Assembly (NCBI RefSeq): GCF_013408525.1
Contig: NZ_JACBZM010000001.1
Coordinates: forward strand, 4,402,001 to 4,466,000
DNA: 64,000 nucleotides
From: Nocardioides aromaticivorans
Lineage (GTDB): Bacteria; Actinomycetota; Actinomycetes; Propionibacteriales; Nocardioidaceae
Direction: 5' to 3'
Position numbers and translations under genes: made by a program. Positions 6,599-32,149 of this stretch are shown here, piece after piece; position 1 is the first letter of the stretch, and the number at the start of each line of letters is the position of its first letter. The notes beneath the pieces were generated by a model, which saw only the letters and a list, made by a program, of their open reading frames with translations, searched no databases and was not told the DNA's origin.

Positions 6599-6627
6599 TT
6601 GGTCACAACAAGAACGTGTTCTAATAT
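6599..6627 (+). promoter_or_regulatory. mce promoter with KstR-type operator
   Basis: A promoter-like pair is visible: TTGGTC (6599-6604), a 17-base spacer, then TAATAT (6622-6627). Between and overlapping the -10 lies AAGAACGTGTTCTA (6610-6623), which matches the KstR consensus TnnAACnnGTTnnA except for the first base. KstR bound here would block RNA polymerase. The expected transcription start is near 6634, about 50 bases before the first yrbE gene. Confidence 0.7.
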
Positions 6628-6684
6628 TGCCCGGCGACGTGCTCAGGGAAGCGCGTCGGGCAGGCACGGGAGAGGAGCGCGGGC

Positions 6685-7458
6685 GTGGCGTTCAACGCCG
6701 TTTCGGTCGTTCGCGGCCCCGGTGAGATCGCGCTGATGGTCGTCGAGGTGACCAAGCGGATCTTCACCCGCCCGTTCCAGTTCCGGGAGTTCCTCGAGCA
6801 GGCCTGGTTCGTCACCAGCGTCACGCTGATGCCGACCATCATGGTCTCGATCCCCTTCGGGGCGGTCATCTCGCTGCAGGTCGGCAACCTGACCGGGCAG
6901 CTGGGCGCCCAGTCGTTCGCCGGTGCGACCGCGGTGCTCGCCACGGTGCGCGAGGCGGCCCCCATGGCCGCGGCGATGATCATCGCCGGCGCCGCGGGGT
7001 CCGCGATCTGCTCCGACCTCGGCGCGCGCAAGATCCGCGAGGAGATCGACGCGATGGAGGTGCTGGGCATCGACCCACTCGAGCGCCTGGTGGCTCCCCG
7101 GGTCGTCGCGACCATGTTCGTCGCGCTGATGATCAACGGCATCGTCATCGGGACCGGTATCGGAGGCGGCTACTTCTTCACCGTCATCGTCCAGGGCGGC
7201 TCGGCCGGTGCCTTCCTGTCGTCCTTCACCGCGCTCGCCTCGCTGCCCGACCTCTACATCGCCATGGTGAAGGCGGTCATCTTCGGGTGGCTGGCCGCGA
7301 TCATCGGCGCCTACAAGGGCCTCGGCGCCGGCGGCGGCCCGAGCGGCGTCGGCCGCGCCGTCAACGAGTCGGTGATCATCGCGTTCATGGCGCTGTTCTT
7401 CCTCAACGCCGTGATCACCGCCATCTACTTCCAGATCGCTCCGCCGGTGGGTCTCTGA
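6685..7458 (+). CDS. yrbEA: MlaE/YrbE-type permease A of the Mce transporter
   Basis: A 257-residue ABC-type permease of the MlaE/YrbE family, the first of the pair that forms the inner-membrane channel of Mce lipid importers. It has about five hydrophobic segments and the conserved family motif with SDLGARKIREEIDAMEVLGIDP near residues 112-133. The start is GTG at 6685, preceded by AGGAG (6673-6677). It is the first gene of an eleven-kilobase operon and lies behind a KstR-type site, which suggests a Mce4-like, sterol-importing system. The matching ATPase (MceG) is normally encoded elsewhere and is not in the window. Confidence 0.95.
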   Translation: MAFNAVSVVRGPGEIALMVVEVTKRIFTRPFQFREFLEQAWFVTSVTLMPTIMVSIPFGAVISLQVGNLTGQLGAQSFAGATAVLATVREAAPMAAAMIIAGAAGSAICSDLGARKIREEIDAMEVLGIDPLERLVAPRVVATMFVALMINGIVIGTGIGGGYFFTVIVQGGSAGAFLSSFTALASLPDLYIAMVKAVIFGWLAAIIGAYKGLGAGGGPSGVGRAVNESVIIAFMALFFLNAVITAIYFQIAPPVGL

Positions 7459-8297
7459 TGGCCGTCGCAGGGGAGATCGTGGGCGGCGCGGTCAAGAGCA
7501 GCCGTTCCGGCCTCGAGGGGTACGGCGACCAGCTGCTCTTCTACGCCAAGGCGCTCGTCTGGGCGCCGCGGGCCATCCGCCGCTACCCGCGCGAGATCAG
7601 CAACACCCTCGCCGAGGTCGCGTTCGGGGCCGGGGGCCTGAGCCTGATCGCCGGCTCCGTCGGCGTGATCGCGTTCATGGCCTTCTTCGCCGGCACCGAG
7701 GTCGGCATCCAGGGCTACGCCTCGCTGAGCCAGATCGGCGTCGCGAAGTTCAGCGCCTTCATCTCGGCCTACTTCAACACCCGCGAGGTCGCCCCGCTGG
7801 TCTCGTCGATCGCGCTGGCCGCGACCGTCGGCTGCGGCTACACCGCCCGCCTGGGTGCGATGCGGATCTCCGAGGAGATCGACGCGCTCGAGGTGATGGG
7901 CATCCCGTCGCTGCCCTTCCTCGTCACGACCCGGATGATCGCGGCCTTCGTCGCGGTGATCCCGCTCTACATCGTGGCCCTGTGCGCGTCGTACCTCTCG
8001 CCGCGGCTCATCGTCACCTTGATCTACGGGCAGTCGCCGGGCACCTACGACCACTACTTCCTGCAGTTCCTGCCGCCCATCGACATGGTGTGGTCCTTCT
8101 TCAAGCTGCTCTTCCTCGCGGTCGCGGTGATCCTCATCCACTGCTACTACGGCTACACCGCCTCCGGTGGCCCGGCCGGCGTGGGTCGCGCGGTCGGCAA
8201 GGCGATCCGGACCAGCATCGTGACCATCGTCGTCGCCGACTTCTTCCTCAGCTTCGCCATCTGGGGCTCGACGACCACGGTCCGGATCACGGGGTGA
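7458..8297 (+). CDS. yrbEB: MlaE/YrbE-type permease B of the Mce transporter
   Basis: A 279-residue second YrbE permease. The conserved motif (TARLGAMRISEEIDALEVMG) lies near residues 128-147, and the C-terminal half is strongly hydrophobic. It follows yrbEA with TGATG overlap of stop and start. YrbEA and YrbEB are expected to form a heterodimer in the plasma membrane, driven by a shared ATPase and receiving substrate from the MceA-F assembly. Confidence 0.95.
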   Translation: MAVAGEIVGGAVKSSRSGLEGYGDQLLFYAKALVWAPRAIRRYPREISNTLAEVAFGAGGLSLIAGSVGVIAFMAFFAGTEVGIQGYASLSQIGVAKFSAFISAYFNTREVAPLVSSIALAATVGCGYTARLGAMRISEEIDALEVMGIPSLPFLVTTRMIAAFVAVIPLYIVALCASYLSPRLIVTLIYGQSPGTYDHYFLQFLPPIDMVWSFFKLLFLAVAVILIHCYYGYTASGGPAGVGRAVGKAIRTSIVTIVVADFFLSFAIWGSTTTVRITG

Positions 8298-8304
8298 GGG
8301 CCTG

Positions 8305-9624
8305 ATGCTGGTCAACATCCACCACGACAGCGCCCGGGAGCACAATCGACTCCTGGTGGCCGGGATCGGCTTCCTCACCGCGATCGCGCTGCTCATCTGG
8401 CTGTCGATCGCGATCTACAACAAGGCGTTCGACAGCACCACGACGATCACGGTCAAGGCCGACCGGGCCGGTCTGCAGCTCGCCAAGTTCGGCGACGTCC
8501 GGATCCACGGGGTGCTGGTCGGCCGGGTCGAGAAGATCGACCAGGACGGCGAGCAGGCGGAGATCACCCTCGCCCTCGAGCCGGACGCGGCGAAGAAGAT
8601 CCCCGCCGACGTCGACGTGCAGATCCTGCCGACCACCCTGTTCGGCCAGAAGTTCGTCGCGCTCGTGCGCCCCGACGGCGGCGGCTCCTCGACCTCGCTC
8701 AAGGACGGCGACGTCATCCCCGCCGACCGGGTCGAGACCAATGTCGAGCTCAGCCAGGTGCTCGCCGACCTCTTCCCGCTGCTGCGCGCCGTCCGCCCGG
8801 CCGACCTCAACCTGACGCTCAACGCGCTGGCGACCGCGCTCGAGGGCCGGGGCAGCGAGATCGGCGAGACGATGGACCAGCTGGGGGAGTACCTCGGCGC
8901 CATCGAGGACCACCTGCCCACGCTGCGCGAGGACCTGATCGCGCTGGCCGACGTCGCCGACGCCTACGACCTCGCCGCGCCGGACCTGCTCGACATGCTC
9001 GACAACGTCACCGTCACCAGCAAGACGGTCACCGAGAAGGCGAAGGACCTCGACACCTTCTTCTCCGACCTCACCGGTCTGGCGAGGACGGGCACGCGGA
9101 TCCTCACCACCAACGAGCAGAACCTGGTCCGGATGGGCGAGGTCACCGAGCCGGTCATGGCCCTCCTGGCGGAGTACTCGCCGGAGTTCCCGTGCCTGAT
9201 CCGCGGCGCGGCCAACTACGCACCGATCCTGTCGAAGACCTTCGAGGGCAACTGGGTGAAGCAGTACATCGAGCTCGGCACCCCGCAGTACCGCGCCTAC
9301 GACGAGCGCGACCTGCCCGAGTACGGCGAGGTCGGCCACGGTCCGTGGTGCCTGGGCCTGCCGAAGTTCACCGTCCCGGCTCCCGCCACGCCGCTGGACC
9401 AGGGCTCCGACATCGACGAGAAGGGCGGCTACCTGCCCTTCCCGATCCCCGGCGTCGAGAACCCCAACGTGAGCCTCGACAGCGGGTACGCCGGCAGCGA
9501 GGCCGACCAGAAGGTGGTGAACGCGGTGCTGGCGAGCAAGGCCGGGGGCGAGCCGTCGTCGTACGGCGCCCTGGGGTCGCTGCTCTACGGGCCCGTCGTG
9601 CGTGAGGGGCGGGCGGCCGGATGA
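8305..9624 (+). CDS. mceA: Mce family protein A
   Basis: A 439-residue MCE protein. A single N-terminal hydrophobic segment (about residues 13-33) anchors it outside the membrane. The MCE/MlaD domain (about 42-120) binds hydrophobic ligand; the long helical region follows, and the C-terminal third is proline and glycine rich with paired cysteines, as in the actinobacterial MceA (DUF3407-containing) subtype. It starts 7 bases after yrbEB. In mycobacterial Mce4 this position is the cholesterol-transport subunit Mce4A; assignment of substrate here rests on the KstR-type promoter. Confidence 0.93.
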   Translation: MLVNIHHDSAREHNRLLVAGIGFLTAIALLIWLSIAIYNKAFDSTTTITVKADRAGLQLAKFGDVRIHGVLVGRVEKIDQDGEQAEITLALEPDAAKKIPADVDVQILPTTLFGQKFVALVRPDGGGSSTSLKDGDVIPADRVETNVELSQVLADLFPLLRAVRPADLNLTLNALATALEGRGSEIGETMDQLGEYLGAIEDHLPTLREDLIALADVADAYDLAAPDLLDMLDNVTVTSKTVTEKAKDLDTFFSDLTGLARTGTRILTTNEQNLVRMGEVTEPVMALLAEYSPEFPCLIRGAANYAPILSKTFEGNWVKQYIELGTPQYRAYDERDLPEYGEVGHGPWCLGLPKFTVPAPATPLDQGSDIDEKGGYLPFPIPGVENPNVSLDSGYAGSEADQKVVNAVLASKAGGEPSSYGALGSLLYGPVVREGRAAG

Positions 9625-10727
9625 GCAACACGTCCGCGAGCCACCTCCTCAACCGCCGCAACGCCGCGACCACGTCGGCCGCGATCAAGCTCGGCATCTT
9701 CACCGCGGTCTCGATCCTCGTCACCGGCACGCTGGCGGTGATCATGGGCAACATCGGCTTCGGTGACCGCAACGAGTTCAAGGCGGTCTTCACCAACGCG
9801 ACCATGCTCGAGAAGGGCGACGACGTCCGCGTCGCGGGCGTCAACGTCGGCGAGGTCAGCAAGGTCGAGCACTACAAGCGCTCGATGGCGCTGGTGACCT
9901 TCAAGGTCGACGCCGGCGTGCACATGACGACCGCCTCGCGCGCGGAGATCCGGTTCCTCAACCTCGTCGGCGACCGCTACATGGCGCTGGAGGAGGGCAC
10001 CGGCGCCGACGGCGCCGATCCGCTGCACGACGGCGACACGATCAAGGTCGAGAACACCAAGCCGGCCCTCGACCTGACCGTCCTCTTCGACGGCTTCAAG
10101 CCGCTGTTCGCCGCGCTCACCCCCGACCAGGTCAACGAGCTGAGCATGAACCTCGTCCAGGTGCTGCAGGGCGAGGGCGGCACGGTGAAGAGCCTGCTGG
10201 CCCACACCGCCTCCCTGACGACGACCCTCGCGGACCGCGACGCGCTCATCGGCGAGGTCATCACGAACCTGTCGTCGACGCTGAAGACGGTCGACGACCG
10301 CCACCAGCAGCTCAGCACGCTGGTCGTCGAGCTCAAGGACTGGATGACCGACCTCGCCAAGGACCGCGACACGATCGGGTCCTCGCTCGACAACATCTCG
10401 CAGCTGACCGTGACGGTCGCCGACCTCCTGCGTCGGGGCCGGCCGCTGCTCAAGGAGGACATCGCGGCGCTGCGGAGCCTCTCGAAGCTGCTCAACCGGC
10501 CCGAGAACCGCAAGAACCTCTCGCAGCTGCTCGACCGGATGCCCGAGACCATGACCGACCAGACCCGCACGGGCACCTACGGCTCCTGGTACCAGTACTA
10601 CGTCTGTGGTGTCTCCGCGTCCATCCGACTGCCGATCGTGGGGGAGCAGGCGCTGTTGAAGCGGATCTTCGGCTACCTGTCCGAGTTCTCGTTCAAGTCC
10701 ACCGCTCCCCGGTGCCAGGACCATTGA
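9621..10727 (+). CDS. mceB: Mce family protein B
   Basis: A 368-residue MCE protein with an N-terminal membrane segment (about residues 22-44), an MCE domain (about 50-125) and a helical middle region built to stack with the other five Mce subunits into a periplasm-spanning tube. It overlaps mceA by 4 bases (ATGA) and ends with a cysteine-bearing tail (YYVCGVSASIRLP). Position and overlap identify it as the B subunit. Confidence 0.9.
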   Translation: MSNTSASHLLNRRNAATTSAAIKLGIFTAVSILVTGTLAVIMGNIGFGDRNEFKAVFTNATMLEKGDDVRVAGVNVGEVSKVEHYKRSMALVTFKVDAGVHMTTASRAEIRFLNLVGDRYMALEEGTGADGADPLHDGDTIKVENTKPALDLTVLFDGFKPLFAALTPDQVNELSMNLVQVLQGEGGTVKSLLAHTASLTTTLADRDALIGEVITNLSSTLKTVDDRHQQLSTLVVELKDWMTDLAKDRDTIGSSLDNISQLTVTVADLLRRGRPLLKEDIAALRSLSKLLNRPENRKNLSQLLDRMPETMTDQTRTGTYGSWYQYYVCGVSASIRLPIVGEQALLKRIFGYLSEFSFKSTAPRCQDH

Positions 10728-11707
10728 TGGCCAACACGAGCGACGCCCGCATCCTGCGCCTCGGCGTGATCACCCTGGTGGTCATGGCCGTGGTCTCCGC
10801 CGCCACCTTCAACCTGGGCAAGTTCCCGGGCTTCCGCGGTACGACGTACTACGCCGAGTTCTCCGACGCCAGCGGCATCCACAAGGGCAATATCGTCCAG
10901 GTCGGCGGCATCCGCGTCGGCCGGGTCTCCGACGTGACGCTGTCCGGTGACCGGGTCAAGGTGAAGTTCGAGCTCGACGGCGACGTCGACTTCGGCAAGG
11001 AGAGCACCGCCTCGATCGAGGTGCTCAACCTCCTCGGCGAGAAGTTCCTCGACGTCCAGCCGGCCGGAGGAGGCCAGCTCGCGTCGGGGGGCACCATCCC
11101 GCTCGAGCGCACGGAGGCGGCGTACGACATCGTCGGGGTGTTCAGCGACCTGACGACCACGACCGAGGAGATCGACACCGAGCAGCTCTCCCAGGCGCTC
11201 GACACGGTGGCGGACACCCTCGACGTGTCCGCGCCGGAGATCCAGGCGTCCTTCGACGGCATCGCGCGGCTCTCCCAGAGCGTGGCCTCCCGCGACGCCG
11301 AGATCCAGACGCTCTTCGACAGCTCGCAGCAGGTGAGCAAGGTGCTGGCCGACCGCAGCGGCGACATCGTCTCGCTGATGAAGAACAGCGACCTCGTCTT
11401 CAAGGAGCTCACCAAGCGCAAGGCGGCAGTGCACGACCTGCTCGTCAACGCCCGCAGCCTCGCCGTCGAGCTGCGCGGCCTGGTGAAGGACAACGAGAAG
11501 CAGATCGGACCCGCGCTGGCCGAGGTCGACGGGCTGGTGTCCTTCCTGGTGTCGAAGAAGAAGAAGCTCAAGGAGACGCTCGCCGCGCTCGGGCCCTACG
11601 TCTCCATCCTCAGCAACATCATCGGAACCGGTCCCTGGTTCGACGCCTACGCGTCCAACCTGCTGGCCCTGCCGTCCGGTGAGTTCGTTCCCGGGTTCCC
11701 GGAGTGA
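10727..11707 (+). CDS. mceC: Mce family protein C
   Basis: A 326-residue MCE protein: N-terminal hydrophobic anchor (about residues 11-30), MCE domain (about 38-112), then long amphipathic helices. The ATG at 10727 gives a TGATG junction with mceB, the same coupling seen elsewhere in the operon, so it was preferred over a start 15 bases upstream. Confidence 0.9.
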   Translation: MANTSDARILRLGVITLVVMAVVSAATFNLGKFPGFRGTTYYAEFSDASGIHKGNIVQVGGIRVGRVSDVTLSGDRVKVKFELDGDVDFGKESTASIEVLNLLGEKFLDVQPAGGGQLASGGTIPLERTEAAYDIVGVFSDLTTTTEEIDTEQLSQALDTVADTLDVSAPEIQASFDGIARLSQSVASRDAEIQTLFDSSQQVSKVLADRSGDIVSLMKNSDLVFKELTKRKAAVHDLLVNARSLAVELRGLVKDNEKQIGPALAEVDGLVSFLVSKKKKLKETLAALGPYVSILSNIIGTGPWFDAYASNLLALPSGEFVPGFPE

Positions 11708-12957
11708 TGGCGATGGTGACCACGATCCTCAAGCGCATCGACCGGCGGGTGCTCGCGCTCCTCGCCGTCGTCCTGCTCGTCGCCGTGTCGCTCAACCTGC
11801 TGCGCTCGCCGGCGGAGATGAAGACGGTGACCGCCCACTTCCCGCGCGCGGTCAGCGTGTTCGAGGGCACCGACGTCCGGGTGCTCGGAGTCAACGTCGG
11901 CAAGGTCACCGCGGTGATCCCGGAGGGCAACTCCGTGCGCGTCGAGATGGAGTACGACGCCCAGTACCGCATCCCGGAGGACGCGAAGGCGGTCATCGTC
12001 ACCCCGACGCTCGTCGCCGACCGCTTCGTGCAGCTGACGCCGGTCTTCGAGGACGGCGACGCGGTGCTGGCCGACGGCGCCGACATCGCCTTGCCCGAGA
12101 CAGCCGTGCCGGTGGAGCTGGACCGGATCTACAGCAGCCTGCAGAGCCTCACCCAGGCCCTCGGCCCCAACGGCGTCAACAAGGACGGCACGCTCGACCA
12201 CCTGCTCGAGGCGGGGGAGAAGGCCTTCGACGGCCAGGGCTCCCGCGGCAACAAGATGATCGAGGACCTCGCCCAGGCGGCCGAGACCTTCGGCAACGGG
12301 GCCGGGCCGCTCTTCGAGACCGTGACCCAGCTGGCGAAGTTCACCGACACGCTGGCGAAGAACGACAAGCTGGTCCGGGCCTTCATGCAGGACCTCACCG
12401 GCGTCTCGGCCATGCTGGCCGAGGAGAGCGACGAGCTCGAGCAGGCAGTCGCCGCGGTCGCCAAGGCGGTCGGTGGCGTGAAGGGCTTCGTCAACGACAA
12501 CCGCGACGCCTTCGTGACCGACGTCCGCAAGCTGACCGACGTCATGAACACGATCGTCTCGGAGAAGGACAACATCGAGACGGCGGTGAAGATCGCCCCC
12601 ACCGCCATGGCCAACCTCCAGATGGGCTTCGACCACGTGGCCGACGGCCAGAACAGCCGGGTCGCGATCGGTGGCTACGTGTGGGACGCCGACGGCATCG
12701 TCTGCGCGATCATCCAGCAGCACCCGACCATGCCGAAGGCGCTCAAGGACACCGCGTGCGACCTGGTCGAGAAGGTCATGGAGCCGATCCTGGCCAAGCT
12801 CCCGTGGCTGCCGCCGGAGTACAAGTCCTACCTGCCGAAGGCCAAGACCGCCGGGGCGGACACCAGCCAGGGCATCCGGCGACCGGAGAGCACGCCGGTG
12901 ACCTACGCGAGCGGTGACGGCGCGACCGTCGAGGATCTCCTGGGAGGTACGTCGTGA
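11707..12957 (+). CDS. mceD: Mce family protein D
   Basis: A 416-residue MCE protein with a hydrophobic N-terminal anchor (about residues 11-28), an MCE domain (about 35-110) and a helical middle, followed by a proline-rich segment with a cysteine pair (about 325-350). ATG 11707 overlaps the mceC stop by one base; GTG 11704 is the alternative start and would add one residue. The C-terminus is degenerate and short of known motifs, as is normal for the D subunit. Confidence 0.9.
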   Translation: MAMVTTILKRIDRRVLALLAVVLLVAVSLNLLRSPAEMKTVTAHFPRAVSVFEGTDVRVLGVNVGKVTAVIPEGNSVRVEMEYDAQYRIPEDAKAVIVTPTLVADRFVQLTPVFEDGDAVLADGADIALPETAVPVELDRIYSSLQSLTQALGPNGVNKDGTLDHLLEAGEKAFDGQGSRGNKMIEDLAQAAETFGNGAGPLFETVTQLAKFTDTLAKNDKLVRAFMQDLTGVSAMLAEESDELEQAVAAVAKAVGGVKGFVNDNRDAFVTDVRKLTDVMNTIVSEKDNIETAVKIAPTAMANLQMGFDHVADGQNSRVAIGGYVWDADGIVCAIIQQHPTMPKALKDTACDLVEKVMEPILAKLPWLPPEYKSYLPKAKTAGADTSQGIRRPESTPVTYASGDGATVEDLLGGTS

Positions 12958-14300
12958 CCCGCCCCGCCGCGCGCAGCTGGCGCGCGAAGACGCTCGCGGC
13001 CCTCGCCGGGCTGGTCGTGCTGACCGGCTGCAGCAGCTTCGACGGCGCCTACGACCTTCCCCTGCCCGGGCACGAGGTGGACGCCGACGACGCCTTCGAG
13101 GTGACCGTCTACTTCAAGGACGTGCTCAACGTCGTACCGCGCTCGCCGGTGATGGTCGACGACGTCACCGTCGGCGAGGTCTCCGAGGTGGAGCGGGCCG
13201 GCTGGAACGCCAAGGTCAAGCTGCTCATCCGCAAGGACGTCGAGCTGCCCGACAACGCGATCGCCGACATCCGGCAGGTCTCCCTCCTCGGTGAGAAGTA
13301 CGTCGCCCTGGAGGAGCCGACCGAGCAGGAGCCGACCGGCCGGCTGGCCGAGGGCGACACCATCGAGCTGGCGGCCACCGGACGCAACCCGGAGGTCGAG
13401 GAGGTGCTCGGCGCGCTGTCCTTCCTGCTGAGCGGCGGCGGTGTGGCCCAGCTCGGCACCATCACGCAGGAGGCCAACCAGGTGATGTCGGGCCGCGAGG
13501 GCCGGCTGCGCAACCTGCTGTCGTCGCTGGACTCCGTGGTCGGCACGCTGGACCAGCAGAAGGTCCAGATCATCAGCGCGCTCGAGTCGATGAACAACCT
13601 CACCGCGACGCTCAACGCGGAGAAGGACACCATCGGCGACGCGCTCGACGCGACGGGCCCCGCGATCAAGGTGCTCGCCGACCAGCACGACGAGCTGATC
13701 GAGATGCTCAAGGCGCTCGACCAGCTCGGCAAGGTCGGCACCCGCGTCATCAACGCCAGCAAGGAGGACGTGCTCAAGATCCTCGAGGAGCTGAGCCCGA
13801 TCCTGCGCAAGCTGCGCGAGGCCGACGAGCAGCTGGCGCCCGGTCTCAACCTGCTGGTCAGCTTCCCGTTCCCGCAGGCCGCCAACAAGATCGTGCAGGG
13901 TGACTACGCCGACACGATCGCGCGCGCCGACCTCAACTTCGCCAACGTCTTCCACTCCCTCGGCATCCCGGACCTGCAGCTGCCCGACCTCGTCGAGGTG
14001 GTCAACCAGGTGACGCGCTGCCTCAAGAGCGGCAGCCTCACCAGCTCGGCGTGCGCGAAGGTGCTCAGCGACCTCGACCTGCTCAAGCAGCTCAAGGCGG
14101 AGTGCCGGACCCAGGCGCTCAAGGGCAGCCCGGTCTGCAAGCTGCTCAACTCCCTGCCGGACCTCGACCTCGGCAAGCTGCTGCAGGGCGGCCTGCTCGG
14201 GCCCAACGGGATGCTGTCGGGCCTGACCAGCGGGCTCGTCCAGCCGGGGCTCACCCGGCAGGGCGGATCGACCGACGAGCTGCTCGGAGGCACGGCATGA
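12954..14300 (+). CDS. mceE: Mce family lipoprotein E
   Basis: A 448-residue MCE protein that is a lipoprotein: basic N-terminus, hydrophobic stretch and lipobox LTGC (Cys near residue 24). This is diagnostic of the E subunit (LprN-like in mycobacteria). The MCE domain lies about 45-120, followed by long helices and four cysteines in the C-terminal third. It starts at a GTG that overlaps the mceD stop. As the only lipid-anchored subunit it would tether the Mce tube to the outer leaflet of the plasma membrane. Confidence 0.93.
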   Translation: MTRPAARSWRAKTLAALAGLVVLTGCSSFDGAYDLPLPGHEVDADDAFEVTVYFKDVLNVVPRSPVMVDDVTVGEVSEVERAGWNAKVKLLIRKDVELPDNAIADIRQVSLLGEKYVALEEPTEQEPTGRLAEGDTIELAATGRNPEVEEVLGALSFLLSGGGVAQLGTITQEANQVMSGREGRLRNLLSSLDSVVGTLDQQKVQIISALESMNNLTATLNAEKDTIGDALDATGPAIKVLADQHDELIEMLKALDQLGKVGTRVINASKEDVLKILEELSPILRKLREADEQLAPGLNLLVSFPFPQAANKIVQGDYADTIARADLNFANVFHSLGIPDLQLPDLVEVVNQVTRCLKSGSLTSSACAKVLSDLDLLKQLKAECRTQALKGSPVCKLLNSLPDLDLGKLLQGGLLGPNGMLSGLTSGLVQPGLTRQGGSTDELLGGTA

Positions 14301-16146: not shown

Positions 16147-16163
16147 GGCGAGGACGGATTTCG

Positions 16164-16979: not shown

Positions 16980-16992
16980 AACACGTTACAGT
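16963..16992 (+). promoter_or_regulatory. KstR-type operator and leaderless promoter of the ferredoxin reductase operon
   Basis: TAGAACACGTTACA (16977-16990) is a full match to TnnAACnnGTTnnA. A -10 hexamer TACAGT (16987-16992) overlaps its right arm; a weak -35 (AAGACA, 16963-16968) lies 18 bases upstream. The reductase GTG begins 6 bases after the -10, where transcription should start, so the transcript is probably leaderless. The first three operator bases are the stop codon of the preceding gene. Confidence 0.75.
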
Positions 16993-24341: not shown

Positions 24342-24995
24342 GGTGCGCTGCAGCACGCGCAGCGAGCCGACCGCCTCCACCTCGGTGAAGGCGCCGCTCG
24401 CGAGCGCGGGCAGGTAGATCAGCTCGTACGGCGGGCGGCCGCCGTCGGCCGGGTCCGGGAAGACGTCGTGGATGGCGAGATAGCCGCCCGCGTCGACCCA
24501 GTGAGCCCAGCCGGCGAAGTCGTCACGCGCCGGCTGCTCGCCGTGGCCGCCGTCGATGAACAGCAGCGACAGCGGCGTGCGCCAGTGCGCCGCCACCGAC
24601 GTCGACTGGCCGACGATCGCGATCACGTGGTCCTCGAGCCCGGCCCGGGCGATATTCCTGCGGAACTCGCCGAGGGTGTCCATCAGGCCGAGTTCGGGGT
24701 CGACGACGCTGGCGTCGTGGTGCTCCCAGCCGGCCTGGTTCTCCTCGGAGCCGCGGTGGTGGTCGACGGTGAAGACGACGGCCGTCGTACCGGTGGCGGC
24801 GGTGACCTGCTGCGCGGCCGCGCCGAGGTAGATGCCCGACTTGCCGCAGTAGGTGCCGACCTCGAGGGCGGGACCGTGCGGGAGGCGCTCGAGGGCGACC
24901 CGGTGGAGGAGCGCGCCCTCGTCCTCGGGCATGAAGCCCTTGGCGTCGCGGGCGTGTTCCAGCAGGTCGGACGGCATGGTGTCGGTCACCCGCAC
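24312..24995 (-). CDS. class I SAM-dependent methyltransferase (Methyltransf_24 type)
   Basis: A 227-residue methyltransferase of the TylF/Methyltransf_24 type: motif I ALEVGTYCGKSGIYLG (about residues 40-55), the acidic VFTVDHHRG (about 72-80), and LLFIDGGH (about 146-153), which in this family places a metal-binding or catalytic Asp. GTG at 24995 opens the frame; GTG 24989 lies 7 bases after TAGAGT (25001-24996 on this strand) and would be a leaderless start; ATG 24977 is a third option. A palindromic KstR-type site lies just upstream. Confidence 0.78.
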   Translation of the reverse strand: MRVTDTMPSDLLEHARDAKGFMPEDEGALLHRVALERLPHGPALEVGTYCGKSGIYLGAAAQQVTAATGTTAVVFTVDHHRGSEENQAGWEHHDASVVDPELGLMDTLGEFRRNIARAGLEDHVIAIVGQSTSVAAHWRTPLSLLFIDGGHGEQPARDDFAGWAHWVDAGGYLAIHDVFPDPADGGRPPYELIYLPALASGAFTEVEAVGSLRVLQRTSGAAGDPLA

Positions 24996-25008
24996 ACTCT
25001 AGTAGAGT

Positions 25009-25026: not shown

Positions 25027-25071
25027 CTCGCTCCGCTGGTTGAGGTGCGAGCGCAGCGAGCCTCGAGACCC
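25027..25071. repeat. imperfect palindromic repeat element in the 5' leader
   Basis: The stretch holds GGTTGAGG, GCGAGCGCAGCGAGC and CCTCGAGACC. From memory this arrangement matches a dispersed intergenic repeat common in high-GC actinobacteria. Only this copy is seen in the window. It lies between the KstR-type operator and the start of the FadE34-like gene, in the transcribed leader. Confidence 0.45.
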
Positions 25072-25081
25072 CAGGAGTGCC

Positions 25082-27121
25082 ATGTCCCTCGGTATCAGTG
25101 ACGACCAGGTCGAGCTCGCCGACAGCCTGCGCAAGTGGGCCGCCAGCATCGGGCCGGTCGAGGCCGTGCGCGCGGCCGAGGGCGACGCGGGCGCCGACTT
25201 CGCGGCCGTGTGGGCGGCCGTCGAGGAGATGGGTGTCGCGGCGATCGCCGCCCCGGAGTCGGCCGGCGGTGGGGGCGGCACCGTCCTCGACCAGGCGGTC
25301 GCGCTCGAGGCGTGCGCCCACGAGCTGGTCCCCGGTGGCCTGCTCGGCGCGGCGATCGGCGGCGTGCTCACCGGCCGACCGGGCCGCCACGGCGTGCAGG
25401 TCCACCCCGGTGGTGCGGTCTGGGACGGCGGTACGGCGACCGAGCTGCTGCTGCTCGACGACGGGGAGGTCGCGGCCGAGGTCGGCGTCGACCTCAGCGC
25501 CCGGCACGCGCGCGTGTCGGGTGGCACGCCGGCCGCCGCGGCGGACGAGCGACGACGCCTGCTCGCGGTGACCCTCGCTGCGGCCGAAGCCGCCGGCGTG
25601 GCCCGCTGGTGCCTCGAGACCGCCGTCGACTACGCGAAGGTGCGCGAGCAGTTCGGGCAGAGGATCGGTGCCTTCCAGGCCATCAAGCACCTCTGTGCGC
25701 AGATGCTCGAGACCGCCGAGTCGGTGACCGCGGCCGCGTGGGACGCCGCGGCCGCCGCCACGGCGCTGGACGAGGGCGCAGGCGACGACGCCCAGTGGGC
25801 CTTCGCCGCCGACGTCGCCCAGGCCACGTGCTTCGACGGCGCCGTCGAGGTCGCCAAGTCCTGCATCCAGGTGCTCGGCGGCATCGGGTTCACCTACGAG
25901 CACGACGCCCACCTCTACCTGCGCCGGGCGCTGACCCTGCGCGCGCTCGTCGGCTCCTCCGACGCCGCGGCCGAGCGGATCACCGCCGCCGCCGTCTCCG
26001 GTGTACGACGCCAGGTCGACGTCGACCTCGAGGGCCGCGACGCCGCGGTCCGACCCGAGGCCCGGGCCACCGCGGAGCGGATCGGGTCGCTGGAGCCGGC
26101 GGACCAGCGCGCGGCGCTGGTCGATGCGGGCTACCTGACACCGCACTGGCCGGCGCCCTACGGGCTCGGCGCCGATCCGACCCTGCAGATCGTGATCGAC
26201 CAGGAGCTGGGCCGGGCCGGCGTCGTACGGCCGGACCTGGTGATCGCCGGCTGGGCGGTCCCGACGATCCTGTCCCACGGCACGGACGCCCAGCGCGAGC
26301 GCTTCGTGCGCCCGTCACTGCTCGGCGAGCTGACCTGGTGCCAGCTGTTCTCGGAGCCCGGCTCCGGGTCCGACCTCGCGTCGCTGCGCACCCGTGCGAC
26401 CCGGGTCGAGGGGGGTTGGTCGCTGACCGGCCAGAAGGTGTGGACGTCGGTGGCCGAGCGGGCGGACTGGGGCATCTGCCTGGCCCGCACGGACCCGGAC
26501 GCGCCGCAGCACAAGGGCATCACCTACTTCCTGGTCGACATGCGCTCGGCCGGCATCGAGGTCCGCCCGCTGCGGGAGATCACCGGCGAGGCGCTCTTCA
26601 ACGAGGTCTTCCTCGACGAGGTGTTCGTGCCCGACGAGTGCGTCGTGGCCGAGCCCGGCGACGGCTGGCGGCTGGCCCGCACCACGCTCGCCAACGAGCG
26701 GGTCGCGATGGCGAGCGCCCGGCTCACCAAGAGCGTCGAGCGGGCCGTCGAGCTGGCCGCGTCGCGCGACCTCGGCGCCGTCGCCCGGGTCCAGGTCGGC
26801 CACCAGGTCGCGCTGGCGACGGTCTGCGCCCTGCTCGGCGTGCGGACCACCCTGCGCGCCCTCGGCGGCCACGGCCCCGGCGCGGAGTCGAGCGTGGCGA
26901 AGCTGCTCGGCGTCCGCAGCCGTCAGGACTCCTCCGAGCTGGTCGTGAGGCTGCAGGGTGACGAGCTCGCCCTGCTCGGCGCGATCGGCAAGGAGTCGGG
27001 CGACCCGCTCGCCGCCGACGTGTGGGAGCAGCTCAACACCCGGTGCCTCTCGATCGCCGGCGGCACCACGCAGATCCTGCGCAATGTGGCGGGGGAGCGG
27101 ATCCTGGGCCTGCCGCGCTAG
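25082..27121 (+). CDS. tandem-domain acyl-CoA dehydrogenase, FadE34/ChsE3-like
   Basis: A 679-residue protein made of two acyl-CoA dehydrogenase domains: one at residues 1-300 (with REQFGQRIGAFQAIKH near 193) and one at 330-679 (with QLFSEPGSGSDLASL near 420, GQKVWTS, and the C-terminal AGGTTQILRN). This double length is the mark of FadE34 (ChsE3), which oxidises C24 steroid-side-chain CoA esters and in M. tuberculosis is encoded beside kstR. FAD binding is expected mainly in the second domain. ATG 25082 has AGGAG at 25073-25077. A perfect KstR-type operator lies upstream. Confidence 0.82.
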   Translation: MSLGISDDQVELADSLRKWAASIGPVEAVRAAEGDAGADFAAVWAAVEEMGVAAIAAPESAGGGGGTVLDQAVALEACAHELVPGGLLGAAIGGVLTGRPGRHGVQVHPGGAVWDGGTATELLLLDDGEVAAEVGVDLSARHARVSGGTPAAAADERRRLLAVTLAAAEAAGVARWCLETAVDYAKVREQFGQRIGAFQAIKHLCAQMLETAESVTAAAWDAAAAATALDEGAGDDAQWAFAADVAQATCFDGAVEVAKSCIQVLGGIGFTYEHDAHLYLRRALTLRALVGSSDAAAERITAAAVSGVRRQVDVDLEGRDAAVRPEARATAERIGSLEPADQRAALVDAGYLTPHWPAPYGLGADPTLQIVIDQELGRAGVVRPDLVIAGWAVPTILSHGTDAQRERFVRPSLLGELTWCQLFSEPGSGSDLASLRTRATRVEGGWSLTGQKVWTSVAERADWGICLARTDPDAPQHKGITYFLVDMRSAGIEVRPLREITGEALFNEVFLDEVFVPDECVVAEPGDGWRLARTTLANERVAMASARLTKSVERAVELAASRDLGAVARVQVGHQVALATVCALLGVRTTLRALGGHGPGAESSVAKLLGVRSRQDSSELVVRLQGDELALLGAIGKESGDPLAADVWEQLNTRCLSIAGGTTQILRNVAGERILGLPR

Positions 27122-27157: not shown

Positions 27158-28459
27158 CTACGGCTGGCCGGCAGCGCGGCGAGAGGCACTCTCCGGCAGC
27201 TTGCTGCCTCCACCGGTGCCGGAGACGCGCTCGGCCCGATGGCGGAGCCAGTGCCAGGTCAGGAACCGGTCGGTCGCGCGCACGAGGTGCTGCGAGCGGA
27301 TCGACGGGAACACGTCGAACGCGTGCTGGGCGCCCGGCAGCTCGGCGTACACGACCGTCCGCTTGGACGTGGCGCGCAGCGCCTGCGCGAACGCGCGCGC
27401 CTGCCCGGGGTCGACGAGCGTGTCGCGGGAGCCGTGGACGACGAAGAAGTCCGGGTCGTCCGGCGTCACCCGCAGCAGGGGAGAGGCCGCCTCGAACAGC
27501 TCCGGGTCGTCGGCGAACCGGCGCTTCGCGATCCGGGGCGCGAGGAACTTGTCGCGCATCAGCTCGGCCGACCGCAACCCGGTCGCGCCGGCCCAGTCGT
27601 AGACCCCGTAGTAGGGCACGGCCGCCTGGACCGCGGTGTCGGCGTCCTCGAACCCGGGCTGGAACTCGGGGGCGTTGGGCGTCACGGCCGCCAGGGCGGT
27701 GAGGTGCCCGCCGGCGGAGCCGCCGGTGATCGCGATGTACGACGGGTCGCCGCCGTAGTCGGCGATGTTCTCCCGGATCCACGCGATCGCCGCCTTGACG
27801 TCGATGATCTGCGCCGGCCACGGGTCGCGCGGGGCGAGCCGGTAGTTGATGGCCACGCACACCCAGCCCTTGGCGGCCATGTGCTGCATCAGCGGGAGAC
27901 CCTGCTGGTCCTTGTTGCCGATCGTCCAGCCACCGCCGTGGACCTGCAGCAGGACGGGTGCGCCGCTGCCGGGGGTGACCTCCGAGGTGTAGACGTCGAG
28001 CAGGCCGCGCCGGCCGTGCGGCGCGAACCGGATGTTGCGGTGCACCTCGACGCCGGCCCTGCGGGCGGCCCGGCCGAAGGCGAACGGGTTGGCGATGCTC
28101 CGCCACGGCGTGGCCAGGTCCGCCGGGGTCGGCTTGGCGTCCAGCTGCTCCACGTAGTCGACGCCGAGCCCCTCGACCAGCGCGTCCTCCGCGTCGCGGA
28201 CGGCCTCGCGGCTCTGCTTGACGAGGTAGGCCAGGCCGGCGGCCGAGGCGCCGGCGAGCGCCAGGCCCCGCCAGTCCCGGCGCGAGGCGCGCAGGTGTGC
28301 TGCGGCATCGGCGGCGGTCAGCCCCAGCACGTGGGGGGCGAGCTCACCGGTGAGCCAGCCGGCGAAGAAGGCCGGGATGCCGGCGCGGAAGCCGGGGAGG
28401 GGACGGATGGCGTTGGCTGTCAACGCGGCGGTGATCGCCTGGCGCCGTACGAATCCCAT
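27158..28459 (-). CDS. alpha/beta hydrolase, LipC-like esterase of the HSL family
   Basis: A 433-residue esterase. After a helical N-terminus with one hydrophobic segment (about residues 75-92), the catalytic domain shows the oxyanion motif HGGGW (about 195), nucleophile GGSAGG (about 270), acid in GSRDTLVD (about 365), and the histidine in AQHAFDVF (about 398). In M. tuberculosis LipC sits beside a WS/DGAT acyltransferase gene; the same pair is divergent here. The ATG 28459 lies 6 bases after TACCCT (28471-28466 on this strand), a leaderless arrangement. It would hydrolyse ester lipids. Confidence 0.83.
   Translation of the reverse strand: MGFVRRQAITAALTANAIRPLPGFRAGIPAFFAGWLTGELAPHVLGLTAADAAAHLRASRRDWRGLALAGASAAGLAYLVKQSREAVRDAEDALVEGLGVDYVEQLDAKPTPADLATPWRSIANPFAFGRAARRAGVEVHRNIRFAPHGRRGLLDVYTSEVTPGSGAPVLLQVHGGGWTIGNKDQQGLPLMQHMAAKGWVCVAINYRLAPRDPWPAQIIDVKAAIAWIRENIADYGGDPSYIAITGGSAGGHLTALAAVTPNAPEFQPGFEDADTAVQAAVPYYGVYDWAGATGLRSAELMRDKFLAPRIAKRRFADDPELFEAASPLLRVTPDDPDFFVVHGSRDTLVDPGQARAFAQALRATSKRTVVYAELPGAQHAFDVFPSIRSQHLVRATDRFLTWHWLRHRAERVSGTGGGSKLPESASRRAAGQP
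27171..27233. repeat. dispersed repeat, copy B
   Basis: A 63-bp stretch sharing three identical blocks with 20337-20398, including the CCGGCAGCTTGCTGCC hairpin core. It forms the last codons of the LipC-like esterase (residues after GTGGGSKLPE), suggesting the gene's tail has run into the element. Confidence 0.55.
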
Positions 28460-28491: not shown

Positions 28492-28509
28492 TGATACCCG
28501 TTCTAGTTT
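28492..28509. promoter_or_regulatory. degenerate KstR-type operator between esterase and WS/DGAT
   Basis: TGATACCCGTTCTA (28492-28505) differs from TnnAACnnGTTnnA in one fixed base (T for the first A). TAGTTT (28504-28509) overlaps its right end, exactly as at 25021-25026, and would serve as -10 for the acyltransferase. Confidence 0.55.
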
Positions 28510-28525
28510 CTATGGGGGTCACGGA

Positions 28526-29926
28526 ATGGACCGGCTGTCGGGGCTCGACGCGAGCTTCCTCTACCTCGAGACGCCCGCGCAGCTGATGCACGTGTGCGCG
28601 GTGATGGTGCTCGACCCGGCGACGATGACGTCGCCGTACACGTTCGCAGCGCTCCAGGACAGGATCGGCGAGGCCGTCCGCGACGTCCCCGGCTTCACGC
28701 GCAAGATCCGCGGCGTCCCGCTCGGCCTGGACCACCCGGTCTGGGTGCGCGACCGCAACTTCGACATCGAGCGCCACGTGCACCGGCTCGCGGTCCCCAC
28801 CCCGGGCGGGTACGCCGAGCTGATGGACCTGTGCGCCCACCTGGCCTCGCTCCCGCTCGACCGCTCGCGGCCGCTGTGGGAGATGTGGGTGATCGAGGGC
28901 TACCGCGACGCCGACGGCGACGAGAAGGTCGTCGTCTTCGCCAAGATGCACCACGCCACCGTCGACGGCGTCTCCGGCGCCAACCTGATCTCCCACCTGT
29001 GCTCGATCGAGCCGGACGCCGCGCCGCTGGCGCCCGTCGAGCAGCGCCACCCCCGCGACCCGGGCCGCGGCGAGCTGCTCGGCCGTGCCGTCATCGGTAC
29101 GGCGACCCGGCCGGTCACCCTCGTCAAGGTGCTCAAGCCGTCGGCCGAGCTGGTCACCAAGAGCATCGGCCGCGCCCGCCGCGGCACGGCGATGGCCGCC
29201 CCGTTCTCCGCGCCGCGGACCTCGTTCAACGGCACGATCACCTCGCACCGCTCGATTGCCATGGCGGACCTCGACCTCGACGAGATCCGGCGGATCAAGA
29301 AGGCGACCGGGACCACGGTCAACGACGTCGTCCTCGCGATCGCCGGAGGGGCGCTGCGGGCCTACCTTGCCGAGCGCGACGAGCTGCCGTCGTCCTCCCT
29401 GCTCGCCACCGTGCCGGTGAGCGTGCGCGACTCCTCGCGCCGCTCGGGCGGCGCCAACAAGGTGTCGGCGCTGTTCACCAAGCTCGGCACCGACATCGAC
29501 GACCCGCTCGAGCGGCTGCACATGCTCGCCGAGCGCAACCAGAACGCCAAGGAGCACCACAACGCGATCAGCGCCGACGCGCTGCAGGACTGGGCGGAGT
29601 TCGCCGCGCCGCGGACCTTCGGCCTCGCGGTGCGGACCTACGCCAACCTGCGCCTCGCCGAGCGGCACCCGGTCGTGCACAACCTCGTCATCTCCAACGT
29701 GCCCGGCCCGCCGATCCCGCTCTACTTCATGGGGGCGCGCATCGAGGCGCTCTGCCCGCTCGGGCCGGTCTTCCACGGCGCCGGGCTGAACATCACGGTG
29801 ATGTCCAACGCCGGCCAGATGCACGTCGGCGCCATCGCCTGCCGGGAGTCGATGCCGGACACCGACGCCCTGGTCCGGCACTTCCCGGCCGAGCTCGAGC
29901 GGCTCAGCGAGGCCGTCGGCGACTGA
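28526..29926 (+). CDS. wax ester synthase / diacylglycerol O-acyltransferase family protein
   Basis: A 466-residue WS/DGAT protein. The catalytic motif HHxxxDG is present as HHATVDG (about residues 143-149), and the second conserved region has NNDVVLAI-like sequence (TTVNDVVLAIAGGALR, about 263-278) and the NVPGPP segment near 391. These enzymes move an acyl group from acyl-CoA to diacylglycerol or a long-chain alcohol at the membrane surface, making storage lipid. GGGGG (28514-28518) precedes the ATG. Sterol-derived acyl-CoA may supply it, given the KstR-type site. Confidence 0.88.
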   Translation: MDRLSGLDASFLYLETPAQLMHVCAVMVLDPATMTSPYTFAALQDRIGEAVRDVPGFTRKIRGVPLGLDHPVWVRDRNFDIERHVHRLAVPTPGGYAELMDLCAHLASLPLDRSRPLWEMWVIEGYRDADGDEKVVVFAKMHHATVDGVSGANLISHLCSIEPDAAPLAPVEQRHPRDPGRGELLGRAVIGTATRPVTLVKVLKPSAELVTKSIGRARRGTAMAAPFSAPRTSFNGTITSHRSIAMADLDLDEIRRIKKATGTTVNDVVLAIAGGALRAYLAERDELPSSSLLATVPVSVRDSSRRSGGANKVSALFTKLGTDIDDPLERLHMLAERNQNAKEHHNAISADALQDWAEFAAPRTFGLAVRTYANLRLAERHPVVHNLVISNVPGPPIPLYFMGARIEALCPLGPVFHGAGLNITVMSNAGQMHVGAIACRESMPDTDALVRHFPAELERLSEAVGD

Positions 29927-31110: not shown

Positions 31111-31130
31111 GCGCAGCCCGTCCGCGGGCG

Positions 31131-31162
31131 AGGGGCGTGACGTCGTACGACGTCGCGCCCCT
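31131..31162. terminator. strong bidirectional terminator hairpin
   Basis: Bases 31131-31146 pair along their whole length with 31147-31162 (16 pairs including one G-T wobble), centred on GACGTCGTACGACGTC, with TT and a short T-rich run after it. It lies between convergent genes, 20 bases after the DUF475 stop and 34 bases from the hydrolase stop. Confidence 0.8.
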
Positions 31163-31195
31163 TCTGCGTTTCCCGAGGGTCGTTCAGGTGGTCGC

Positions 31196-32122
31196 TCAGG
31201 CGGGCGCCGACGGGCGCTGCCGGAAGTCGCGGCGGCGCGCGTTGACCGTCGCCGCGGCCTCGACGAGCTTCGGCACGAACTTCTCCGACGCCAGCACGCA
31301 GCCGGCGTGCCCGTCGTCGACCTCGTGGATCGTCGCGCCCGGGATGGAGCGGGCGAGCGCGATCTGCCGCGAGGTCGGGATCACCCGGTCGCGCATCATC
31401 ACCACGACGGCCGTCGGCACGTCGATCCGCCCGATCCACGGGCGGGAGTGGTGGCGGCCGAGCGCGGCCACCGCTTGCCCGACGGCCCAGGGACTGGTGG
31501 AGCGGAACTCCCGCAGCGCCCACTCGTGCATGTCGGACACCTCGATGTCGACGCCGCGCGCTGCCAGCCGTGCGGCCTTCAGGGCCGTCCGTGAGCGCGA
31601 CACGCCCCGCAGCGCCACCATGGTGGAGCCCATCCCCAGGAAGAAGCCGCGCTCGGCGGGGGTCAGCTGGAAGCGGTCCGTGGTCGCGGCGAGCACGAGT
31701 CCCCGCACGATCCCCGGGTGCTGGCGCCAGACCCGCTGGGCGATGATCGAGCCCATCGAGTAGCCGGCGACGACCACGTCGCGCAGGTCGAGCACCTCGA
31801 CGAGGGCCGCGACGTCGTCGGCGCAGTCGGCGAGCGAGAACTCCTCGCTGCGGATGCCCTGCCCGTGCCAGCGCTGGTCGAGGGTCACCACGCGGAACCG
31901 CCGCGACAGCGGCCGGATCGTCGGGAACCAGGTGAGCAGGCCGGTCGTCCCCAGCGCGTGCAGCAGCACGATGGTGGGGGAGTCGGGGCTCGGGCCGGGC
32001 GTGTCGGTCACCCAAGTCGCACCGCCGCGTCCCGGCAGCTCGACCATCCGGCCTGCCGGGATCGGGGTCCACGGCAGGTAGACCCGGTTGCGCGCGACAT
32101 CCGCGAGTGAGACGACACCCAT
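31196..32122 (-). CDS. alpha/beta hydrolase
   Basis: A 308-residue hydrolase. Visible catalytic features are the oxyanion segment LLHALGTTG (about residues 50-58), the nucleophile elbow GYSMGS (about 115-120), the acid in MMRDRVIP (about 253), and the histidine in DDGHAGC (about 281). ATG 32122 lies 7 bases after TAGTCT (32135-32130 on this strand), so the message should be leaderless. It shares a 34-bp intergenic region and KstR-type operator with the igr-like operon, which suggests a thioesterase or ring-cleavage-product hydrolase role in steroid catabolism. Confidence 0.78.
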   Translation of the reverse strand: MGVVSLADVARNRVYLPWTPIPAGRMVELPGRGGATWVTDTPGPSPDSPTIVLLHALGTTGLLTWFPTIRPLSRRFRVVTLDQRWHGQGIRSEEFSLADCADDVAALVEVLDLRDVVVAGYSMGSIIAQRVWRQHPGIVRGLVLAATTDRFQLTPAERGFFLGMGSTMVALRGVSRSRTALKAARLAARGVDIEVSDMHEWALREFRSTSPWAVGQAVAALGRHHSRPWIGRIDVPTAVVVMMRDRVIPTSRQIALARSIPGATIHEVDDGHAGCVLASEKFVPKLVEAAATVNARRRDFRQRPSAPA

Positions 32123-32129
32123 GCGCGTC

Positions 32130-32149
32130 AGACTAGAACACGTTACAGT
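32130..32149. promoter_or_regulatory. KstR-type operator with overlapping divergent leaderless promoters
   Basis: TAGAACACGTTACA (32134-32147) matches TnnAACnnGTTnnA. The -10 of each divergent gene overlaps an operator end: TACAGT (32144-32149, plus) 7 bases before GTG 32157, and TAGTCT (32135-32130, minus) 7 bases before ATG 32122. The whole intergenic region is only 34 bp. Confidence 0.82.

What the first reader, a model, noticed from the sequence alone, without database searches (positions are those of the whole stretch)
6599..32149. A KstR-type regulon: kstR plus six matching operator sites in 26 kb
Sites fitting TnnAACnnGTTnnA occur at 6610-6623 (one mismatch), 16977-16990, 21094-21107, 25009-25022, 28492-28505 (one mismatch) and 32134-32147, and only at promoter positions. 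The TetR gene at 20401-21012 has the conserved KstR DNA-binding region. Together they link an mce importer, a redox module, FadE34-like and igr-like enzymes, lipid enzymes and a glycosyltransferase cluster. The KstR consensus is established knowledge for mycobacteria; its use here is inferred.
Basis: partly seen in the sequence, partly recalled or inferred. Interest (0 to 1): 0.8.

Follow-up and report, generated by a model that had tools for sequence, protein, structure and literature searches.

The report
Sterol regulon that captured polysaccharide genes
A soil bacterium's cholesterol-sensing repressor sits among its own predicted control sites; one of them, kept in many relatives, faces genes for a sugar polymer proposed to modulate fat metabolism, and that link persists in relatives that appear to have lost sterol degradation.

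Summary
The window is from a Nocardioides species. All six sites are real and at the stated coordinates: 4 perfect matches against 0.05 expected, and 53 palindromes genome-wide against 5 for the reversed control. Each site is conserved in relatives. One correction: five more one-mismatch hits lie inside genes.

The TetR gene is kstR. The mce4, fadE34 and igr-type regulon is already described in the close relative Nocardioides simplex (cluster B, RNA-seq), so the headline finding is known.

What is new lies in the "glycosyltransferase cluster". It is the methylmannose polysaccharide (MMP) cluster manT-pmeT3-mmpH-meT1. Its kstR|manT operator is kept, with at most one core mismatch, in 60 of 61 relatives with that layout. 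In 10 of 10 genomes with manT away from kstR, manT has a KstR-like site (6 perfect); in 29 genomes without kstR, none does. Eight genomes that appear to have lost the sterol regulon keep kstR and a site at manT. Searches of the held library found no paper naming both methylmannose and KstR.

Also new: many operators end in the TA of a -10-like box exactly 10 bp before the start codon, implying leaderless mRNAs. Binding and regulation are inferred, not shown.

The parts
5786..6481 (-). Ion_trans_2 ion-channel protein, divergent from mce4; the half of site S1 facing it is the degenerate one, so probably not a KstR target
   Evidence: PF07885; site asymmetry in 11 of 15 relatives, the other 4 perfect
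6610..6623 (.). S1: predicted KstR operator of mce4, AAGAACGTGTTCTA, one mismatch in the half facing away from mce4
   Evidence: 15 of 15 mce4A orthologues examined have a site with at most 1 mismatch at the same position
6685..16979 (+). mce4-type steroid importer operon: yrbE4A, yrbE4B, six mce genes, two mas-like genes (coordinates of the block)
   Evidence: TIGR00056 152 bits, under its cut-off of 212, for 6685-7458; TIGR00996 186 bits, over its cut-off of 140, for 8305-9624; other members by order and blastp synteny
16977..16990 (.). S2: predicted KstR operator TAGAACACGTTACA inside the mce4-to-redox run; TACAGT is a -10-like hexamer ending 6 nt before the GTG start of the next gene
   Evidence: kept in 44 of 49 relatives (43 perfect)
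16999..17991 (+). YumC-type ferredoxin-NADP reductase (thioredoxin-reductase-like fold; no CXXC visible in the printed alignment)
   Evidence: 277 bits to 2zbw, 266 to 3lzw
17993..18460 (+). PPOX/F420-type oxidoreductase
   Evidence: PF01243; TIGR03618 under cut-off
18472..18666 (+). single-cluster 4Fe-4S ferredoxin
   Evidence: PF13459
18663..19574 (+). SDR (PRK07792 equivalog), Hsd4A-type (name by position in N. simplex, KR76_12260)
   Evidence: 458 bits, cut-off 414; PMC7807495 table
19571..20323 (+). SDR dehydrogenase
20401..21012 (-). kstR, TetR-family repressor
   Evidence: NF033703 262.9 bits; PDB KstR 193 bits
21094..21107 (.). S3: operator between kstR and manT, TGGAACACGTTCCA, 81 bp from kstR and 56 bp from manT
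   Evidence: 60 of 61 kstR|manT relatives keep it with at most 1 core mismatch
21164..22447 (+). manT, alpha-1,4-mannosyltransferase of MMP synthesis (start 21164 by homology, MRIA...; searches used the shorter frame from 21176)
   Evidence: 459 bits full length to 7qsg (the entry calls it D-inositol 3-phosphate glycosyltransferase; that this entry is ManT is recalled and fits the neighbours); start:
22450..23199 (+). pmeT3, putative 3-O-methyltransferase of MMP synthesis
   Evidence: SAM methyltransferase; name by cluster order
23196..24341 (+). mmpH, MMP endomannosidase
   Evidence: 384 bits to 7qsj 'Methylmannose polysaccharide hydrolase (MmpH)'
24312..24995 (-). meT1, MMP 1-O-methyltransferase
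   Evidence: 257 bits to 6g7d/6g80/6h40, 'Methyltransferase domain protein' (that these are MeT1 is recalled); PF13578
25009..25022 (.). S4: TAGAACGCGTTCTA between meT1 and fadE34; by inference the inherited fadE34|kstR operator
   Evidence: 41 of 42 meT1|fadE34 relatives with at most 1 mismatch; 16 of 17 fadE34|kstR loci have a perfect site between the two genes
25082..27121 (+). fadE34/chsE3-type two-domain acyl-CoA dehydrogenase
   Evidence: N. simplex KR76_12295
27158..28459 (-). LipQ-like esterase
   Evidence: NF052354 352 bits, under its cut-off of 700
28492..28505 (.). S5: TGATACCCGTTCTA between the esterase and WS/DGAT genes, one mismatch
   Evidence: 24 of 27 divergent relatives with at most 1 mismatch
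28526..29926 (+). wax ester synthase/DGAT
   Evidence: TIGR02946 498 bits, cut-off 310
31196..32122 (-). alpha/beta hydrolase, divergent from chsE
   Evidence: PF00561
32134..32147 (.). S6: TAGAACACGTTACA between the hydrolase and the igr-type operon
   Evidence: perfect in 7 of 8 relatives and in 5 of 5 further orthologues L126-L130, own locus not counted and overlap of species possible
32157..34325 (+). chsE: fused sterol acyl-CoA dehydrogenase; N half like Tcur3481, C half like Tcur3483
34322..36820 (+). igr-type side-chain genes: MaoC-like, separate DUF35 (ChsH2 C-terminal), ChsH1-like MaoC, Ltp2 aldolase

Best explanation
The region is the kstR core of a genome-wide KstR regulon for sterol uptake and side-chain degradation. 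KstR (a dimer) sits on 14-bp palindromes that overlap the promoters and blocks RNA polymerase; acids or CoA-thioesters of early sterol breakdown release it. In most Nocardioides examined, the four MMP genes (manT-pmeT3-mmpH, meT1) lie in what was probably the kstR-fadE34 intergenic space, and manT is a KstR target in its own right. [quoted passage not shown] In some relatives the sterol pathway appears to be gone and KstR is kept, I infer, as the MMP regulator. At many targets the operator's outer TA is the start of a -10-like box (TANNNT) placed so that transcription would begin at the start codon (leaderless). Shown here: sites, their conservation, gene identities, and co-occurrence of the manT site with kstR. 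Inferred: binding, repression, ligand, MMP production, leaderless starts.
For: KstR identity. Sites beyond chance. Site conservation (at most 1 core mismatch): S1 15/15, S2 44/49, S5 24/27, S6 7/8, S3 60/61, S4 41/42; background 6/122. MMP genes: 7qsj 384 bits, 7qsg 459 bits, 6g7d 257 bits; gene order as in mycobacteria. manT site tracks kstR in 88 Nocardioides genomes: manT in 88/88 at E 1e-90, kstR in 59/88 at E 1e-45. Upstream of manT, a site with at most 1 core mismatch is present in 10/10 kstR+ genomes where manT is not beside kstR (6 perfect, 4 with one mismatch), and in 0/29 kstR- genomes. In two of these ten (G239, G225) the gene before manT runs in the same direction, so no divergent gene can own the site. 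Eight kstR+ genomes have at most 3 TNNAACNNGTTCTA hits and 0/8 have a chsE match at 1e-90, against 10/10 chosen controls. All eight keep a site with at most one core mismatch at manT and an open kstR frame with the VALGTLYRYFPSK helix. Other family genera: 6/6 genomes with kstR beside manT keep the site (1 perfect, 5 with one mismatch). Leaderless register: 13/13 starts at gap 10 read TANNNT. Class-wide, the same 148 genomes: 93 hits in 25 genomes for gap 10 with T (15 of them in the own genome), 9 in 8 for gap 12 with T, 16 in 16 for gap 10 without T. Sterol induction of the orthologous cluster in N. simplex.
Against: No binding or expression data for this organism. NCBIfam's KstR cut-off is just missed. 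The kstR|manT site could serve kstR autoregulation alone; its conserved mismatch (51 of 61) fits a kstR -10 box. The six perfect manT-only sites have near-identical surroundings and look like one clade; the other four have a core mismatch (three GTT to GAT, one GTT to GTG). Loss of the sterol regulon in the eight genomes rests on site counts and one marker gene. The main texts of the N. simplex RNA-seq papers do not name the genes in the MMP position, and only about a third of operons with predicted KstR/KstR2 motifs were induced. In the 10 genomes of family f4 with manT, 8 have no site with at most one mismatch within 500 bp and 2 have one only at 355 and 422 bp. The leaderless register is looser elsewhere: in the own genome 12 of 29 TA-ended half-sites at other gaps have the T, and 17 of 28 starts with gap 4-13 have a hexamer in place; in the kstR neighbourhoods of relatives 18 of 47 starts with gap up to 15.
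Confidence: 0.78

Rival explanations
1. Plain, already known KstR sterol regulon. The MMP genes are passengers between kstR and fadE34: S3 serves kstR autoregulation only and S4 serves fadE34 only.
For: The regulon is in print for N. simplex. S4 looks like the ancestral fadE34|kstR operator (16 of 17 loci without the insert have a perfect site there). The conserved S3 mismatch fits a kstR -10 box.
Against: 10 of 10 genomes with manT away from kstR have a site at manT, 0 of 29 without kstR. In G239 and G225 no divergent gene shares that site. kstR is kept with a manT site in 8 genomes that appear to lack the sterol regulon.
Confidence: 0.2
2. The manT-side sites belong to another TetR-type repressor with a similar palindrome, or are promoter elements that resemble the motif.
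For: The four non-perfect detached manT sites depart at a core base; -10 boxes contribute TA ends.
Against: Six detached sites are perfect KstR palindromes, and none is found in the 29 kstR-less genomes although manT stays.
Confidence: 0.08
3. Orphan kstR genes are decaying remnants after recent loss of sterol catabolism, without function.
For: Three orphans sit on long branches and the sensor part is more diverged (mean 53% identity to the window protein against 78% in 30 intact ones, which are nearer relatives by choice).
Against: 8 of 8 frames without stops and recognition helix identical; sites at manT kept; orphans are scattered over the KstR tree, though support is weak.
Confidence: 0.25

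Closest known systems
KstR regulon of M. smegmatis and M. tuberculosis (Kendall 2007, PMC1995591; passages and section 10 read)
   Same: TetR repressor, TnnAACnnGTTnnA, kstR beside fadE34, sterol genes as targets; the motif overlaps the putative -10 of kstR.
   Different: There kstR is directly divergent from fadE34; the M. smegmatis site list (31 entries) has none at the MMP genes MSMEG_6481-6484.
Nocardioides simplex VKM Ac-2033D cluster B, KR76_12190-12345 (PMC7807495: abstract, sections 13 and 15, passages; PMC7593942: passages)
   Same: The same cluster; KstR sites predicted and induction on phytosterol, cholesterol or lithocholate measured there.
   Different: In what I read, the MMP genes, orphan-KstR genomes and the fixed leaderless register are not mentioned; supplements were not read.
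Mycobacterial MMP cluster meT1-mmpH-pmeT3-manT (PMC9883506, passages)
   Same: Same four genes in the same order; solved relatives of three of the four proteins.
   Different: KstR and cholesterol do not occur in its main text; here the cluster lies between kstR and fadE34 and carries KstR-type sites.
M. smegmatis P5228 leaderless KstR promoter (Uhia 2011; content recalled, paper not held, seen only as a citation) and R. ruber kstD3 minimal 23-bp promoter (PMC5348764, section 13 and passages)
   Same: Operator overlapping the promoter, transcript starting at or near the start codon.
   Different: Single promoters; here a fixed 10-bp register recurs across the own regulon and in other genomes of the class.

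Membership tests
KstR | Sequence orthology to characterised KstR | tested here: met
   193 bits over residues 10-203 to M. tuberculosis KstR structures; next distinct protein 84 bits
KstR | NCBIfam NF033703 curated cut-off (a naming threshold, 280 bits) | tested here: inconclusive
   262.9 bits, under the cut-off; next family 42 bits
KstR | Operator palindrome in its own promoter region | tested here: met
   21094-21107 between kstR and manT
KstR | Genome-wide set of sterol uptake and catabolism genes under the same palindrome | tested here: met
   53 sites against 5 control; steroid 3-ketoacyl-CoA thiolase, EchA19 and FadD8 equivalogs beside sites (30 flanking genes scanned, 10 with any family at 1e-70); window genes
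KstR | Release from DNA by steroid acids or their CoA-thioesters | not testable with these tools
   needs purified protein
MMP biosynthesis cluster | MmpH, MeT1 and ManT orthologues | tested here: met
   (names of the MeT1 and ManT entries recalled)
MMP biosynthesis cluster | pMeT3 in the same conserved order | tested here: met
   SAM methyltransferase between manT and mmpH
MMP biosynthesis cluster | The organism makes MMP | not testable with these tools
   needs extraction and mass spectrometry
Leaderless promoter with operator/-10 overlap | TANNNT placed so that transcription would start at the codon | tested here: met
   13 of 13 at gap 10 in the own genome; class-wide 93 against 9 and 16; looser at other gaps
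Leaderless promoter with operator/-10 overlap | Mapped 5' end at the start codon | not testable with these tools
   no transcript ends available

The most novel reading that the evidence does not exclude
In Nocardioidaceae KstR is a conserved regulator of methylmannose polysaccharide synthesis. [quoted passage not shown]
Probability: 0.55. Interest if true: 0.75.

Novelty: new variant of a known kind. Interest (0 to 1): 0.55.

Why it matters
No regulator of MMP appears in the passages I read. A sterol-ligand repressor that controls it would give MMP a metabolic signal and a testable role, and would explain why KstR outlives sterol catabolism in some genomes. The operator/-10/start-codon register gives a simple rule for finding KstR targets and predicts their start codons.

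Tried and rejected
Plasmid origin: no match of window 24000-26000. Ion-channel gene as KstR target: rejected, since the half-site facing it is the degenerate one (11 of 15 relatives; the other 4 perfect). 'Thioredoxin reductase' for 16999-17991 (suggested by NCBIfam): rejected for ferredoxin-NADP reductase. Weak glucoamylase-like reading of 23196-24341: replaced by MmpH. Leaderless register in L001-L080 alone: not dominant at gap 10 (3 starts), I think because these loci hold few distinct targets. The KstR tree has weak support and long orphan branches; the number of orphan changes depends on labelling (3 on the unnamed-genome loci only, 7 on all rows, at least 4 forced by starred branches, but some unlabelled rows may be orphans too). 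Rows dropped: L058 from the S3 table because no kstR was found in it; 6 fadE34 loci whose neighbour is neither meT1 nor kstR are not in the S4 count (3 perfect, 1 one mismatch, 2 none); loci without the gene pair in question from S2, S5 and S6; L131, a 44% chsE relative without a site. S3 was not checked in the 43 sterol-intact genomes of the 88 where manT adjoins kstR, only in 61 loci of the named collection (best 80 of 559 kept) and in 6 orphans. My first gene model put the manT start 12 bp too far downstream; one search corrects it and the distances printed. Structure prediction and the large protein search were not used.
Full report
Check of the observation. The six sites are exactly where stated. 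Perfect matches to TnnAACnnGTTnnA: 4 in the window against 0.05 expected, 0 of 100 shuffles. Allowing one mismatch gives 11 against 2.18 expected; five of the seven one-mismatch hits lie inside genes, so 'only at promoter positions' holds for the perfect ones alone. In the 5.26-Mb genome there are 53 palindromes and 5 for the pattern read backwards; requiring a GTTCTA half gives 55 hits and 0. By my gene models 39 of 53 are intergenic, and 33 of the 36 with a TAGAAC half.

Organism and literature. KstR is 97% identical to that of Nocardioides sp. Root240 and 92% to Pimelobacter simplex. The region corresponds to cluster B (KR76_12190-12345) of N. simplex VKM Ac-2033D, where KstR control was predicted and 12 genes of the cluster were induced on phytosterol (PMC7807495); mce genes were induced on cholesterol and lithocholate (PMC7593942). 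The plain regulon is therefore known.

Genes. 20401-21012 is kstR. 6685-16979 is an mce4-type operon. 16999-17991 is a ferredoxin-NADP reductase of YumC type, followed by a PPOX protein, a 4Fe-4S ferredoxin and two SDRs: a plausible electron supply for sterol oxygenases (inference). 25082-27121 is fadE34-like. 32157-36820 is an igr-type operon with a fused acyl-CoA dehydrogenase (halves like Tcur3481 and Tcur3483) and a ChsH2 split into MaoC and DUF35 proteins. The 'glycosyltransferase cluster' is the MMP cluster: ManT 459 bits to 7qsg, MmpH 384 bits to 7qsj, MeT1 257 bits to 6g7d, pMeT3 by order. Only 7qsj carries the MMP name in the listing; that 7qsg is ManT and 6g7d is MeT1 is recalled. 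By homology manT starts at 21164.

Footprinting. In the 80 loci kept by the genome-collection scan I called genes, matched them to the window and scored the best site in each relevant intergenic region. S3 (kstR|manT): 9 perfect and 51 with one core mismatch out of 61. S4 (meT1|fadE34): 37 perfect and 4 with one mismatch out of 42. Where fadE34 adjoins kstR directly, 16 of 17 have a perfect site between them. With the M. tuberculosis layout this suggests that the MMP block lies inside an older kstR-fadE34 space. S2 44 of 49, S5 24 of 27, S6 7 of 8, background 6 of 122. S1 15 of 15; all 11 mismatches there fall in the half facing away from mce4, so S1 points at mce4.

KstR and MMP. Among 88 Nocardioides genomes at least 95% complete, manT is in 88 and kstR in 59 at E 1e-45. 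TNNAACNNGTTCTA hits, both strands, number 15-57 in 51 kstR+ genomes and 0-5 in the 29 kstR- genomes. Eight kstR+ genomes have at most 3 hits; none of these has a chsE match at 1e-90, while 10 of 10 chosen controls do (9 of them a true orthologue; G043 only a 46% relative). By coordinates kstR adjoins manT in 43 of the 51 and in 6 of the 8. In the 10 genomes where it does not, manT has a site 12-73 bp upstream: 6 perfect, 4 with one core mismatch. In the 29 kstR- genomes none has a site with fewer than 2 mismatches within 400 bp. The detached MMP clusters are complete in the 5 examined, and in two of them the upstream gene runs towards manT. The six adjacent orphans keep S3 with one core mismatch, and the recognition helix VALGTLYRYFPSK is identical in 8 of 8. 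Outside the genus, 25 genomes were searched and 21 have manT: 6 of 6 Nocardioidaceae with kstR beside manT keep a site (1 perfect, 5 with one mismatch); 2 without kstR beside it have none; of 10 in family f4, 8 have none within 500 bp and 2 have a one-mismatch hit at 355 and 422 bp; 3 in f15 have none. These genomes are not independent: the six perfect detached sites look like one clade. No paper in the held library contains both 'methylmannose' and 'KstR', 'methylmannose' and 'Nocardioides', or 'polymethylated polysaccharide' and 'KstR'; subscription papers are mostly not covered.

Promoter register. In the own genome 13 start codons lie exactly 10 bp after GTTCTA, and 13 of 13 read GTTCTA-NNNT-N6-RTG, which places a TANNNT hexamer at -12 to -7 of the codon; at other gaps 12 of 29 TA-ended half-sites have the T. 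At S2 the half-site is GTTACA and the gap is 8, with TACAGT in the same place; at S6 it ends 7 nt before the chsE codon. Over 148 genomes of the class: 93 hits in 25 genomes for this register with T (reversed control 1), 9 in 8 for a 2-bp shift, 16 in 16 without the T. Kendall 2007 noted the overlap with a putative -10 at kstR, and R. ruber kstD3 works with 23 bp upstream. I recall, without having it, that one M. smegmatis KstR promoter was shown to be leaderless. The recurrent register across the regulon is my addition; in the kstR-neighbourhood loci alone it is looser.

Verdict. The new content is the MMP identity and its probable KstR control, and the fixed leaderless register.

Noticed in passing
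37840-41261: Riboflavin genes ribD, riboflavin synthase, ribAB and lumazine synthase soon after the igr-type operon, without a KstR site.
   Followed up: no
30001-31110: DUF475/TerC membrane protein between the WS/DGAT and hydrolase genes with no operator of its own.
   Followed up: no
32157-35244: chsE is one fused two-domain protein while ChsH2 is split in two, the reverse of the mycobacterial layout (the mycobacterial layout is recalled).
   Followed up: partly
L231, L232, L233 (orphan kstR loci): KstR of three genomes without the sterol regulon has very long tree branches (about 1.0-2.4) but an unchanged recognition helix.
   Followed up: partly
L097:1052-2989, L112:3034-4479: KstR-type sites in the own genome lie beside a BaiCD/mycofactocin-type OYE flavoenzyme and an endoglycoceramidase-like protein, both under their curated cut-offs.
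   Followed up: no
L299, L301: In G239 and G225 the order ion channel, ferredoxin reductase, manT occurs away from kstR, hinting at an old neighbourhood of these genes.
   Followed up: no
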